Shown: positions 4,829-55,732 of the stretch, one piece after another | Numbering within the stretch: the stretch's first letter is position 1 | Layout of the letters: each line of letters starts with the position of its first letter | From: Dehalobacter restrictus DSM 9455 | Lineage (GTDB): Bacteria; Bacillota; Desulfitobacteriia; Desulfitobacteriales; Syntrophobotulaceae | Assembly: GCF_000512895.1 (NCBI RefSeq) | Contig: NZ_CP007033.1 | Coordinates: 1,599,001 to 1,663,000 of the forward strand | Length of the DNA: 64,000 nt | Direction of reading: 5' to 3' | The notes under the pieces: model-generated | Database searches by the model: none | What the model saw: the letters and a program-made list of their open reading frames with translations, nothing else | What the model was told of the DNA's origin: nothing | Translations under genes and position numbers: made by a program

Positions 4829-4854
4829 GTTTAATAGTAAACTCTGGGTTTACA

Positions 4855-4951
4855 TCATGTAGCCTAACTGCTCTTCGGCTATTGCGCCATCCATGGCGCA
4901 AATAGCCGCGCTCCGCATCGTGCTCCGCTTGGCCGCAGATAGACTACATGA
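4855..4951 (-). repeat. Structured repeat copy A
   Basis: Inner hairpin: CGGCTATTGCGCCAT (4876-4890) pairs with ATGGCGCAAATAGCCG (4893-4908) with one bulge. Outer arms 4855-4871 and 4935-4951 are complementary at 15 of 17 positions. Between them lie two GCTCCGC repeats (4910, 4922). The 41-base core from about 4874 is identical to copy B near 21753, but the outer arms are unrelated in sequence. Read on the minus strand the order (AGCGGAGC, GCGGAGCGCGGC, GGA-apex hairpin, GCCGAA) matches copy D, so the minus strand is taken as the sense orientation. Confidence 0.75.
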
Positions 4952-5073
4952 CGTTATATTTCGGGTCCATTAAGCCATTATATAAAGGTCTCTCGTCGCT
5001 TATTTGCTGTTCTGAATGCTTTAAAATGGAATTAATGTTTATTATATCAATGCCAGACACTTCATACTGCTGA

Positions 5074-5282
5074 ATTCTTCAAATATTGTAGCCTTACACA
5101 GATATGGAGTCGAGCGTTAAGTGTCAGTGGCGTTAAGCGAGCAAAAACCGCAGCGTCAAGACATGCCAACGGTGAACATTCTAAAAAGCCCAGAGGTTTT
5201 GGCATGTTAGCGAGGATTTGTGCGAGTAGCCACGAAAACGTGCGAGCGGAATATCTGTGTAAGGCTGCAATTACTCAAGAAT
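5074..5282 (+). repeat. Structured repeat copy C, long imperfect inverted repeat
   Basis: Arms 5074-5105 and 5251-5282 are complementary over about 32 bases with a perfect 17-base block (GCCTTACACAGATAT and flanks). Nested inside are GTGGC/GCCAC (about 5127 and 5228) and CATGCCAA/TTGGCATG (about 5162 and 5198). The inner text AGCGTTAAG..GGCGTTAAGCGAGC resembles copy D (AGCGAAGC..GGCGTAGCGCGGC). Most of the non-coding stretch 4829-5336 is taken up by copies A and C; I see no gene in the rest. Confidence 0.65.
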
Positions 5283-7879: not shown

Positions 7880-8565
7880 ACAGTCATGACCACCCGTAAA
7901 ACGGGTGGCATGCTCTAGCCCTATAAGGGCTTATTGCAAGCCTGCACCTAAAAGTGCTGGCTTGCACTTCGTTCAAGCCATTCAGCATTTATTACCTGGC
8001 TAACCCCTGAAGGGGTCTTCTAACTCTTTGACACTTACCTTATCATTTATCTGATCATGCAGTTCCTGTTCTCTTACATATTTTGCTATGGTCGCTTCAT
8101 TTAGTCCCACAGTACTGACATAGTACCCGGTTGCCCAGAAATGGCGATTGCCAAACTTATATTTCAAATTGGCATGCCGATCAAATATCATCATTGCGCT
8201 TTTTCCCTTCAAATACCCCATGAAACTTGATACGCTCATCTTCGGTGGAATTGATACAAGCAGGTGGATATGATCGGGCATTGCATGCCCTTCGATTATC
8301 TCTACACCTTTATATTTACAAAGCTCCTTTATTATCTGCGTTATATCTGACTTGATCTGCTTATATATTACCTGCCTCCTATACTTTGGTGTAAATACTA
8401 TGTGGTATTTACACATCCATTTTGTGTGTGCTAAACTTTTATCCATAGAAATTCCCCTTCCTTTTTGCTTTTTGATGGCTTGAACATTCATCATTATAGC
8501 GGAAGGTGAATTTCTTTTTTATAATTCTTTGTCTCCACCCGTGTAACGGGTGGTTTTGTGTTCAA
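7880..8565 (-). mobile_element. IS200/IS605-family insertion sequence (tnpA only)
   Basis: A single Y1 transposase gene is bracketed by two subterminal hairpins with identical stems: CCACCCGT-AAA-ACGGGTGG at 7890-7908 and CCACCCGT-GTA-ACGGGTGG at 8535-8553. IS200-type elements have no terminal inverted repeats; imperfect palindromes near each end are recognised by the transposase as single strands. There is no tnpB, so this is an IS200-like layout. Exact ends cannot be fixed without an empty site; the limits given are estimates. Confidence 0.8.
8000..8446 (-). CDS. tnpA: IS200-type Y1 transposase TnpA
   Basis: 148 residues from ATG at 8446 (AAGGAAGGGG upstream; family proteins start MDKSLAHTKW..). 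It contains the HUH motif HIHLLVS (after GHAMPD) and the C-terminal helix with the catalytic Tyr (ATIAKYVREQE), plus KYHIVFTPKYRRQ typical of the family. It catalyses single-strand peel-and-paste transposition. Length and motifs look intact, so the element may be active. Confidence 0.92.
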   Translation of the reverse strand: MDKSLAHTKWMCKYHIVFTPKYRRQVIYKQIKSDITQIIKELCKYKGVEIIEGHAMPDHIHLLVSIPPKMSVSSFMGYLKGKSAMMIFDRHANLKYKFGNRHFWATGYYVSTVGLNEATIAKYVREQELHDQINDKVSVKELEDPFRG

Positions 8566-21730: not shown

Positions 21731-21834
21731 CGCGTCTCTTCGTAACCGCCTTTTCGGCTATTGCGCCATCCATGGCGCAAATAGCCGCGCTCCACATCCA
21801 TGTTCCGCTTGTCAGGTCGGTTACGAAGATACGC
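21731..21834 (-). repeat. Structured repeat copy B
   Basis: The inner hairpin core (from about 21753 to 21793) is identical to copy A over about 41 bases: CGGCTATTGCGCCAT / ATGGCGCAAATAGCCG. Outer arms GCGTCTCTTCGTAACCG (21732-) and CGGTTACGAAGATACGC (to 21834) pair almost perfectly, yet are unrelated to the arms of copy A. It lies in the cbiB-cobD gap. Confidence 0.75.
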
Positions 21835-22115
21835 TAATCTGTAGAAAGTTTAGGAAAGCACCGAACCGAATACATTAAGTCCCTTTATACTGTCTCAGCC
21901 AGTATTCCTCGCTTTGTTGGCAAGCACAAGTCTAAAATCCTAATTGCCGCCATGTGAAGCACGATGTAGAGCGTTGCGTTCAGAAGCAACAATGCTTAGA
22001 AGGTACTACTACAAGGAGCAAGTCATAAAAAAGCTAGTTACAGAAGGCAAAGTAAACCTGCATATTAAACTTGATAGTGCTTTTTGAGCCGCTAAAGTCT
22101 TCCACCCTTAAGATC
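21835..22115. other. Non-coding stretch between repeats B and D
   Basis: No ORF, tRNA or terminator was recognised here. On the minus strand a short open segment near 21900-21970 reads AAIRILDLCLPTKRGILAE, too short to call a gene remnant. Confidence 0.4.
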
Positions 22116-22223
22116 AGTCTGGGAGTCACAGTTCCGCGACGAGCGAAGCCTGGACGGCGTAGCGCGGCCTTTTGCGTCAAGGAAGACGCAACGGCCGAAA
22201 GCGGTATTGTGACTCACTGACCT
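22116..22223 (+). repeat. Structured repeat copy D
   Basis: Outer arms GAGTCACAGTTCCGC (about 22123-22137) and GCGGTATTGTGACTC (22201-22215) are complementary with two mismatches. The inner hairpin is CGGCC..TTGCGTC / GACGCAA..GGCCG with AAGGAA at the apex (about 22166-22196). The text AGCGAAGC..GGCGTAGCGCGGCC, then GCCGAAAG, aligns with the minus strand of copies A and B. Confidence 0.7.
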
Positions 22224-22302
22224 GCCCCAAAGAACATTTCACCTCTTACAGATTGGCGTAACAGCAGTCGTATTCATATGCCCCTGCTAAACAGAAATAC
22301 TA

Positions 22303-27339: not shown

Positions 27340-27503
27340 AACAGTGCAAAATGGCTCAGGCAGGTCTTCCGACTCGGTTTCAAAGCAAATTCAGCCTTCC
27401 CATTGTAAACAGTGGCAACTTTGAATCTGCTCCACCTTACGGCGGCGGGACCGTACAGGCATTTCACCTGTTTCCCTATTATTGCAAAATTATGCAACCT
27501 AAG
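27340..27503 (-). ncRNA. Cobalamin riboswitch
   Basis: On the minus strand, in order: GGGAAACAGGTGAAATGCCTG, GGTCCCGCC, a GTAAGGTGGAGC stretch, GCCACTG, GGGAAGG and the B12 box GAGTCGGAAGACCTGCC (27356-27375). This is the conserved order of the adenosylcobalamin riboswitch. With the terminator at 27232-27268 it should end transcription early when cobalamin is plentiful. Confidence 0.95.
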
Positions 27504-27510
27504 CGATTAC

Positions 27511-27539
27511 ATTATACCAGAAGACATACAGTGTGTCCA
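27511..27539 (-). promoter_or_regulatory. Promoter of the cobalamin operon
   Basis: On the minus strand TGGACA (27539-27534), 17 bp, TATAAT (27516-27511). It places the transcript start just before the riboswitch. Confidence 0.75.
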
Positions 27540-32348: not shown

Positions 32349-32439
32349 TTGTCGTTACCGTCTGATATTGATGATTTGAAAATAAAGCAGCAAATAAACT
32401 ACCTATTTTCAAATCATCGGGCCCAGACGGTAACGACAA
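32349..32439. repeat. Hairpin H1 of four
   Basis: Outer stem TTGTCGTTACCGTCTG (32349-32364) with its complement (32424-32439), 16 bp perfect; inner stem ATGATTTGAAAATA (32371-32384) with complement (32404-32417), 14 bp perfect; 19-base loop. Confidence 0.85.
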
Positions 32440-32490
32440 TCGCTTACAAGTTTAGTGAGAGAGCCTTACATTAGGAAAAATCCTTGGGCC

Positions 32491-32583
32491 TATTGGCTTA
32501 CCGCTCGGCATGGGGTGATTTGAAAAAGATAATTGCCTGTAATTCAAGCCTTTTCAAATCATGGCTATGGCGGTAAGCCAATA
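32491..32583. repeat. Hairpin H2 of four
   Basis: Outer stem TATTGGCTTACCGC (32491-32504) with complement (32570-32583), perfect; inner stem TGATTTGAAAAG-like with CTTTTCAAATCA. The outer stem differs from H1 and resembles H4. Confidence 0.85.
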
Positions 32584-32655
32584 ACTCTGAGGTATTTTTT
32601 TATCTTGCTGTCTTAAATATTTAAAATGTTTGCTTAAAAATCCAGCTTCAAATGT

Positions 32656-32751
32656 GCTTGTCTTTACTGTCTGAATGTTGGGCGATTTGAAAATAAGGAA
32701 GGCCAACTACTACAGCTTTTCAAATCGCCGGGACAGACAGTAAAGACAAGC
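32656..32751. repeat. Hairpin H3 of four
   Basis: Outer stem GCTTGTCTTTACTGTCTG (32656-) with complement ending 32751, 18 bp perfect; inner stem GGCGATTTGAAAA with TTTTCAAATCGCC (32717-32729). Outer stem related to H1, with paired changes in both arms. Confidence 0.85.
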
Positions 32752-32800
32752 TCTTAGGGGTTAACTACGAAAGTTTACATCAGAAAAATCCTTAGGCTTT

Positions 32801-32889
32801 TTGGCTAACCGCCCAGCATGGATGATTTGAAAAAATTATTGCTAATAATTCAAACCTTTTTCAAATCATTGGCCATGGCGGTAAGCCAA
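32801..32889. repeat. Hairpin H4 of four
   Basis: Outer stem TTGGCTAACCGCC (32801-) with GGCGGTAAGCCAA ending 32889 (one mismatch); inner stem ATGATTTGAAAAA with TTTTTCAAATCAT. Related to H2. The decayed Rhs gene starts directly after it. Confidence 0.85.
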
Positions 32890-54178: not shown

Positions 54179-55732
54179 ATTTACTCAGAAAACACGCGGT
54201 ATTGAATATGTCTCTTCCTGAAAGCGCTGTTCTTCAGTCACTTTTGGAACAGGCTTTTCAGCATGGACTGCTGACTGACGTTGAACTTCAGCATATGCAA
54301 ACACAAATCGTTAAACTCCTGACAAAACAACTGAAACGGTTTACACATGGCGACAGCTGCTCCGTAAAGTCGGAAACAGCGCAAAGTATTGAATATGTCT
54401 CTTCCTGAAAGCGCTGTTCTTCAGTCACTTTTGGAACAGGCTTTTCAGCATGGACTGCTGACTGACGTTGAACTTCAGCATATGCAAACACAAATCGTTA
54501 AACTCCTGACAAAACAACTGAAACGGTTTACACATGGCGACAGCTGCTCCGTAAAGTCGGAAACAGCGCAAAGTATCATGCTGTCCATCCTGTATACGAT
54601 CGGTATCTATCTGAAGAGCCTTTCTAATCCCAGTCTCTGTCTGGATTGTCTCAAACAAGACCAAATCAATGATCTGTTTCAGGAAGGCAGAAACATTATT
54701 AATCTTCGCATCAGTGAAGCCAAAACACTTCTGTCTGTAATTAATCATGACGGTTTGACCTTTGCTAACCAGGCCTATAGCGATACGCTCGAAAATGGCA
54801 TTCCGGCATTTTTTACAGCTTATGATCCGGAATTCGCCGCGCACGAAACACCCGGTTCAATCGATTACCCGCTTAGCAATGATCAGATGGATTTAACAGG
54901 GATTGTCTATATTCATCATTACTTGCAGCAATTATACCATGAGGATACGTTCTGCCTGAATTTCCCCGATGAAGACATCCAATGTTTGCTGCGTGGGTAT
55001 CACGATCATTCCGAGGACTTGCTGCTGAATATTTTTGAGCTGGTATTAGCCCAATCACTTGGCTCAGTACTGGCCGGCAAGTCTGCGCGTCAATTGAATA
55101 TCAGTCAACAGGATCGGGAATACCTTCAGCAGAAATTATCAAAGCTCCCCGACCAGGAATTTGATGTTATGCTGCAGAATGCTTTGACCCAAGTCAGCGA
55201 TGAGCTCGCGTTTAATGACAGGAGTCAGGTTCAGCTGCTTCAAGAAAGTATGGCTTCTTTTGCTGTCAGGCTCAAAAATGCTTTGCATAATGGGCGGTTG
55301 GAAGCAGTCTTTATTACTTTAAAAGCGCAACCGGAGCGCCCTGCGATCATTTTTGAAGACGGACCGGGCTTAGCAGATGACATATTCCGAGACATTGCCG
55401 AAGAAATCCGACAATGCCGCTATATTGAAGATAAGCTTGCAATCATCCGGAGGGAAATTCACAGCGCTGCCGACCTGGCAGATATTCTCGAAGCATCCTG
55501 CCTTTTGGAAGATGAATATGACAGTATTTATCATTCCTTAACCACGCTGGAACTTGCGCTGCTGATCAAATCACTCCCGGCGCCCGATCCATCATTTTTT
55601 ATCCATTCCGGGTACGCGGCCTCTGAAGAAATGAAAGAGTGGCAAATCCGGCTGATTTCCTTTGTTGACCAGCTTGTGCCGTCTGAACGAGCTAACCTGC
55701 TTCATCTTGTCAAAGGTCTGACGATTATATAA
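54172..55732 (+). pseudogene. DUF6179 family gene, frameshifted by a tandem duplication
   Basis: The frame opens at the GTG/ATG overlap with the DUF6323 gene (MVNLLRKHAVLNMSLPES..) but stops at 54408, because a 187-bp segment is repeated and 187 is not a multiple of three. A second frame from 54389 to 55732 (447 residues) carries the rest: TIGIYLKSLSNPSLCLDCLKQDQINDLFQEG and onward to HLVKGLTII. Removing one copy restores a single frame of about 457 residues joining SETAQS to IMLSILYTIG. The second frame could be translated by re-initiation at TTG 54389 or ATG 54395, so some full-length-like product may still be made; no ribosome site is seen there. Confidence 0.75.
54199..54576 (+). repeat. 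Perfect 187-bp tandem duplication
   Basis: Copy 1 is 54199-54385 and copy 2 is 54386-54572, with four more matching bases after it. The two copies read identically over all bases I compared, including TCTCTTCCTGAAAGCGCTG and the end ACAGCGCAAAGTAT. Confidence 0.92.

What the first reader, a model, noticed from the sequence alone, without database searches (positions are those of the whole stretch)
4855..4951. Repeat copies A and B: identical cores inside unrelated but self-complementary outer arms
A 41-base core (CGGCTATTGCGCCAT hairpin) is identical at 4874 and 21753. In each place it is enclosed by a further 17-20 bp stem, and the two outer stems share no sequence with each other. Conserved core plus compensating arms points to selection for a long folded RNA or cruciform, or to a mobile core that lands in existing hairpins.
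Basis: seen in the sequence. Interest (0 to 1): 0.62.

Follow-up and report, generated by a model that had tools for sequence, protein, structure and literature searches.

The report
Mobile RNA hairpins with CsrA-type loops
Copies A and B are two of about 70 scattered copies of a small jumping sequence in this Dehalobacter genome; its transcript would fold into a cloverleaf whose hairpin loops match the binding site of the regulator CsrA, and those loop letters have stayed unchanged since insertion while the letters beside them changed freely.

Summary
A (4850-4956) and B (21733-21833) share a 41-nt core inside unrelated, self-complementary outer stems. They are two of about 70 copies in this genome, whose size matches Dehalobacter restrictus PER-K23. 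Four congeners hold 73-80 copies each; distribution elsewhere is patchy. The informative strand is MINUS at A and B. On it, copies fold into an outer stem plus two hairpins whose loops read C[ANGGAN]G, the CsrA/RsmE recognition motif. The closest known family is Rfam TwoAYGGAY (RF01731). Homology is reciprocal, but B scores 32.9 against a cut-off of 43.

The outer arms covary. Stem mismatches on that strand are G.U rather than A.C (31:8 distinct contexts, p=3e-4). At orthologous sites the loop A+GGA shows 0/164 changes, against 13/81 at neighbouring loop positions and 378/6572 in flanks. Young copies are 189-268-bp units with terminal inverted repeats, flanked by CTAG and absent at orthologous sites. 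The arms travel with the unit, so "core lands in existing hairpins" fails. Recombination between palindromic P2 hairpins swaps arms.

Best reading: a MITE-like, divergent TwoAYGGAY RNA retained because its transcript binds CsrA or a similar protein. Mobility and single-strand selection are shown. CsrA binding and transcription are inferred.

The parts
4850..4956 (-). Copy A: cloverleaf RNA element (outer stem + left hairpin + P2 hairpin), RNA sense on the minus strand
   Evidence: covariance model R1 match 90.8 bits; fold z -6.3; occupied orthologous sites in G001, G002, G004
4876..4908 (-). P2 hairpin of A; loop C[AUGGAU]G at 4888-4895
   Evidence: direct reading; CANGGANG loop in 24/24 seed copies
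4909..4927 (-). left hairpin of A; GGA loop degenerated to ACGAU
   Evidence: alignment A3
21733..21833 (-). Copy B: same element with unrelated outer stem
   Evidence: R1 88.8 bits; Rfam RF01731 TwoAYGGAY 32.9 bits over the whole model, below gathering 43; fold z -7.8
21767..21774 (-). B P2 loop C[AUGGAU]G (CsrA-type hexaloop)
   Evidence: direct reading
21794..21803 (-). B left hairpin ACAUGGAUGU: second CsrA-type hexaloop
   Evidence: direct reading; aligned to the first AYGGAY hairpin of RF01731
21732..21834 (.). Outer stem arms of B (21732-21748 with 21818-21834)
   Evidence: inverted repeat of 17 nt, 94%
22116..22222 (+). Third copy (C) in inverted orientation to B, P2 loop C[AAGGAA]G; B and C form a divergent pair, RNA 5' ends facing
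   Evidence: R1 94.4 bits; pair statistics

Best explanation
A and B are old copies of a family of MITE-like mobile units. Each unit carries a divergent, TwoAYGGAY-like structured RNA: a long outer stem and a junction with two (in larger copies up to four) hairpins whose hexaloops are ANGGAN closed by C-G. Units spread by a CTAG-targeting transposase acting in trans. After insertion the terminal repeats decay, but the folded RNA and its GGA loops are kept because the transcript binds a GGA-loop protein, most likely CsrA, and so acts as dispersed CsrA binding or titration sites. SHOWN here: copy number; mobility of young units; folding and covariation; single-strand (GGA-strand) asymmetry; post-insertion conservation of A+GGA; reciprocal homology to TwoAYGGAY. 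INFERRED: transcription, CsrA binding, titration, identity of the transposase.
For: Copies per genome: 70, 80, 73, 75 and 79 in five Dehalobacter-genus genomes. P2 loop CANGGANG in 24/24 seed copies and in 186 of 200 copies; nearly all of the 14 exceptions are broken elements or still hold GGA. At orthologous sites A+GGA has 0/164 changes, loop N positions 13/81, flanks 378/6572 (p=1e-4 vs flanks, 3e-7 vs N). Outer-stem mismatches on the GGA strand: G.U 100 to A.C 12; distinct contexts 31:8, p=3e-4; per cluster and position 29:8, p=8e-4. Two-sided changes in 65 cells vs 17.9 in shuffles. Six 199-bp units in G003 are 95-98% identical with unrelated flanks and end at CTAG; 18 complete CTAG-bounded units; empty sites. 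RF01731 covers B full length on the GGA strand, B orthologs 36.7-37.2 bits, an L058 copy 41.5 bits. The reverse search with R1 finds a bona fide TwoAYGGAY locus at E 8.5e-7 on the same strand. CsrA is present in G000. ANGGAN hexaloops are the RsmN/RsmE recognition element (PMC3791407), and TwoAYGGAY was proposed to bind CsrA (PMC4333381).
Against: No transcript data were seen, and no consistent promoter precedes the copies: a weak -10-like hexamer in one sub-family only. In G000, 20 of 41 copies are antisense to both neighbouring genes and 14 sense, so host mRNA read-through cannot be the general source. CsrA occurs equally in genomes without the element, and two incomplete genomes with many copies (G018, 84% complete; G041, 91%) showed no CsrA. 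A itself has lost its second GGA loop. G.T is also more stable than A.C in single-stranded DNA, so the strand asymmetry does not by itself separate RNA from ssDNA.
Confidence: 0.55

Rival explanations
1. Purely selfish MITE family. The folded GGA-strand single strand (ssDNA or RNA) is needed for mobility, for example recognised by a transposase; the host gains nothing.
For: Recent near-identical units with terminal repeats and CTAG flanks; patchy distribution; copies avoid divergent intergenic regions (0 of 41), as expected of insertions that must not damage promoters.
Against: Orthologous, long-settled copies keep A+GGA unchanged (0/164) although most G000 copies, including A and B, have no recognisable terminal repeats.
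Confidence: 0.25
2. Cis-acting 3'/5' UTR structures (RNA stabilisers, bidirectional terminators, or CsrA sites on particular mRNAs) that happen to be repetitive.
For: None of 41 analysed G000 copies lies between divergent genes, so every one has at least one gene 3' end beside it; A follows the terminator of a rubrerythrin-like gene; B lies 108 nt upstream of a co-directional gene.
Against: No orientation preference relative to neighbouring genes (14 sense, 20 antisense, 7 convergent), and no run of T follows the stems of A and B.
Confidence: 0.12
3. DNA-level element (cruciform, REP/RAYT-like, or a site for a DNA-binding protein).
For: Copies occur in inverted pairs with 5' ends facing (52 of 59 neighbour pairs), reminiscent of REP pairs; Y1 transposases exist in the genome.
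Against: G.U/A.C asymmetry and one-stranded GGA loops are not expected of a double-stranded symmetric element. The only two Y1 genes are near-identical copies of a 728-bp IS200-like element, not a RAYT, and the unit boundaries are CTAG with terminal repeats.
Confidence: 0.08

Closest known systems
TwoAYGGAY RNA, Rfam RF01731 (Weinberg et al. 2010, PMC2864571)
   Same: Outer stem, multi-branch junction, two hairpins with A-Y-GGA-Y loops on one strand; reciprocal covariance-model matches
   Different: Scores below the gathering cut-off; 70-80 copies per genome rather than a few; much shorter outer stem than the relatives in the same order; carried inside mobile units with terminal repeats; larger copies carry additional hairpin modules
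CsrA/RsmE-binding hairpins of CsrB/RsmZ-type sRNAs
   Same: ANGGAN hexaloop closed by C-G, several per RNA (PMC3791407)
   Different: Not a single-copy sRNA gene; mobile and dispersed; binding not shown
Bacterial MITEs mobilised by IS630-family (Tc1/mariner-like) transposases
   Same: About 200 bp, no gene, terminal inverted repeats, CTAG flanks, multicopy; a DDE_3 element in G000 has the same CTAG|TAC...GTA|CTAG ends
   Different: Sub-terminal repeat sequence differs from that IS, so the mobilising transposase is not identified; carries a conserved structured RNA
REP / REPIN elements with RAYT
   Same: Short, palindromic, dispersed, often in inverted pairs
   Different: No RAYT found, CTAG-bounded unit, GGA hexaloops, longer three-way structure

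Membership tests
TwoAYGGAY (RF01731) | score at or above the curated gathering threshold (43 bits) | tested here: not met
   A no hit at gathering; B 32.9; best confirmed family copy tested 41.5 (L058)
TwoAYGGAY (RF01731) | two hairpins with AYGGAY terminal loops in one junction on the same strand | tested here: met
   B: ACAUGGAUGU and GCCAUGGAUGGC on the minus strand; A keeps one, the other is ACGAU
TwoAYGGAY (RF01731) | homology to accepted members | tested here: met
   R1 finds the 59.9-bit RF01731 locus of G014 at E 8.5e-7 and three loci of other genera of the order at E 0.0013-0.08, same strand each time
CsrA/RsmE-binding RNA | CANGGANG hexaloop hairpins | tested here: met
   186 of 200 copies in P2 (the pattern also accepts a 5-nt loop); loop A+GGA 0/164 changes at orthologous sites
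CsrA/RsmE-binding RNA | binding by CsrA, and expression | not testable with these tools
   needs EMSA/CLIP and RNA-seq; csrA present in G000, next to a fliW-like ORF in the close relative G005
MITE (IS630-type) | terminal inverted repeats and target duplication at both ends | tested here: met
   18 complete units CTAG|TA..TA|CTAG, insertion into CTAG seen against the empty site, young units. Not recognisable at A and B themselves
MITE (IS630-type) | mobilised by a transposase sharing its terminal repeats | tested here: inconclusive
   IS630-like L235 shares CTAG and TAC ends only; no autonomous copy recognised among the 30 best terminal-repeat loci of G003
REP/RAYT | dedicated Y1 (RAYT) transposase gene flanked by the repeats | tested here: not met
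   only two near-identical IS200-like Y1 genes

The most novel reading that the evidence does not exclude
A transposon family has spread 70-80 CsrA-binding RNA modules through each Dehalobacter genome, forming a distributed, mobile titration network for a global regulator; the Rfam motif TwoAYGGAY as a whole would be such a mobile CsrA-binding element.
Probability: 0.3. Interest if true: 0.85.

Novelty: new variant of a known kind. Interest (0 to 1): 0.66.

Why it matters
TwoAYGGAY has been an orphan candidate RNA since 2010, with only a computational suggestion that it binds CsrA. Here a close relative exists in 70-80 copies per genome, many at orthologous sites, so the loops can be tested by evolution: they behave as a protein-binding site (A and GGA fixed, N free) after insertion. 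It would link a mobile element to a global post-transcriptional regulator and gives a directly testable system in organohalide-respiring bacteria.

Tried and rejected
Rfam at gathering threshold: no hit at A or B. Covariation by RNAalifold alone was not relied on; counts with shuffles were used. The first ortholog test was small, and its larger repeat filtered members on the GGA motif, an ascertainment bias; one search repeats it without the filter and the result holds. CsrA co-occurrence is uninformative because CsrA is nearly universal in the order. RAYT/REP hypothesis: only IS200-like Y1 genes. Promoter search upstream of copies: no consistent promoter. Search for an autonomous element with the same ends: none found in G003. 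Literature: no paper found on repeats of this kind in Dehalobacter or on TwoAYGGAY mobility. L029's apparent empty site was not used: its boundaries do not match the unit ends and it may be a deletion.

Full report
WHAT WAS CHECKED. The 41-nt core is identical at 4874 and 21753 and each copy is closed by a long outer stem; both fold far better than shuffles (z -6.3 and -7.8). The window is positions 1599001-1663000 of a 2,943,336-bp single-contig genome. That is exactly the published size of Dehalobacter restrictus PER-K23 (PMC3910700); the identification rests on this size match and on named relatives. The genome carries 45 BLAST matches and 70 covariance-model matches. A third copy in the window is at 22116-22222 on the plus strand.

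DISTRIBUTION. Counts at E<=1e-3 are 80, 73, 75 and 79 in four further genomes of the genus; 47 and 6 in a second genus; 51 and 9 in a third; 9 and 1 in two others; 0 in the other 30 genomes tested. At class level one further genus has 37 copies in one genome and none in another. This is a patchy pattern.

ANATOMY. On the minus strand at A and B the element reads: outer stem P1; a left hairpin with a GCGGAGC-AUGGAU-GCGGAGC type stem; hairpin P2 with loop C[ANGGAN]G; then the 3' arm of P1. Larger copies hold two more hairpins of the same design inside P2 (L025, L030, L031, L032). A smaller remnant of that module sits in the B ortholog of G002. In these copies the loops carry GGA on the same strand.

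WHY THE ARMS DIFFER. There are several arm types (GTCTG..., GTCTCCG..., the A type, the B type). Within the alignment 10 of 11 outer-stem pairs show two-sided changes, and 65 cells have compensated pairs against 17.9 in shuffles. Arms also get swapped by recombination between P2 palindromes. L028 in G000 has the left arm of one copy and the right arm of another, where G001 and G004 keep about 321 nt more, with both copies.

WHICH MOLECULE. If the stem were kept as double-stranded DNA, G.T and A.C mismatches would be equally common, because each is the other read on the opposite strand. On the GGA strand they are 100 to 12 in 125 unique arm pairs. Counting distinct contexts only they are 31 to 8 (p=3e-4), and counting once per cluster and position 29 to 8 (p=8e-4). 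The folded single GGA strand is therefore what is, or was, selected. RNA is the natural candidate. ssDNA and a strand-biased mutation spectrum are not fully excluded.

THE LOOPS. P2 reads CANGGANG in 24 of 24 seed copies and matches that pattern in 186 of 200 copies across genomes; most of the 14 exceptions are truncated copies or still contain GGA. In 30 orthologous groups the loop A+GGA shows 0 changes in 164 comparisons. The N positions of the loop show 13 in 81, flanks 378 in 6572, P2 stem 43 in 1062 and the rest of the element 111 in 3074 (p=1e-4 against flanks, 3e-7 against N). This is the pattern of a protein site that reads A and GGA and ignores N. In the structure of the CsrA-family protein RsmN the consensus is ANGGAN in a hairpin loop, with both adenines and GG contacted (PMC3791407). 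PMC4333381 proposed CsrA binding for TwoAYGGAY on the same grounds.

KNOWN RELATIVE. Rfam RF01731 (TwoAYGGAY; PMC2864571) matches B over its whole length on the GGA strand at 32.9 bits (gathering 43). The B orthologs reach 36.7 and 37.2, a copy in G005 34.9 and one in G015 41.5. TwoAYGGAY loci above threshold occur in the same order, and my model finds the best of them at E 8.5e-7 on the same strand. The family is thus homologous to TwoAYGGAY but below its formal threshold, so I call it a variant and not a member.

MOBILITY. In G003 six 199-bp units are 95-98% identical while their flanks are unrelated, with boundaries at CTAG on both sides in most. The terminal repeat CTAGTACAACGTTCTCTAAATA (up to 3 mismatches) occurs 50 times there, against 0 for the reversed-pattern control. 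Eighteen complete units of 189-268 bp with CTAG|TA...TA|CTAG-type ends were found. In G002 a unit lies in a CTAG that is single at the orthologous site of G000. L008 is absent from G001 and G002, while G004 keeps its ends without the hairpin. An IS630-type DDE_3 element of G000 has the same CTAG|TAC...GTA|CTAG ends but different sub-terminal sequence, so the mobilising transposase is unidentified. A and B no longer have recognisable terminal repeats. That is consistent with the RNA part outliving the transposable part.

CONTEXT. Of 41 G000 copies analysed none lies between divergent genes; 14 are sense and 20 antisense to co-directional neighbours, 7 between convergent genes (genes taken as long ORFs). 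Neighbouring copies are nearly always in the order minus-plus, RNA 5' ends facing (52 of 59; orthologs included, so not all independent). B and C form such a pair. No consistent promoter was found, so how the RNA would be made is open.

JUDGEMENT. Shown: a multicopy mobile family with a covarying one-stranded fold and loops conserved after insertion. Inferred: expression, CsrA binding, titration.

Noticed in passing
window 5074-5282: A second dispersed repeat of about 200 bp with 32-nt terminal inverted repeats (84%) sits next to A; copies at about 74% are common in G001, G002 and G004, and it is missing from this site in G001.
   Followed up: partly
window 8000-8494: IS200-like Y1 transposase (728-bp element) with a near-identical copy at genome position 2025996.
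   Followed up: partly
window 54199-54572: Perfect tandem duplication of 187 bp overlapping the start of the ORF at 54389-55732.
   Followed up: no
window 32349-32850: 36-nt hairpin arms and repeated GATTTGAAAATA blocks (families D4 and D7).
   Followed up: no
window 27342-27517: Cobalamin riboswitch on the minus strand, 114 bits.
   Followed up: no
window 21830-21843 and 22247-22260: 14-nt inverted repeat (93%) that encloses copy C and the B-C spacer; possible remnant of unit ends.
   Followed up: no
L040 (genome 222300-224300): Hairpins of the same CCATCCATGG loop design, without the P1 stem, in what looks like a ribosomal RNA spacer.
   Followed up: no
P2 loops of orthologous copies: The free N positions of the loop change about three times faster than flanking DNA (13/81 vs 378/6572), perhaps because the loop is exposed as single strand.
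   Followed up: no
G018 and G041: Genomes with 51 and 37 copies but no CsrA found (84% and 91% complete).
   Followed up: no
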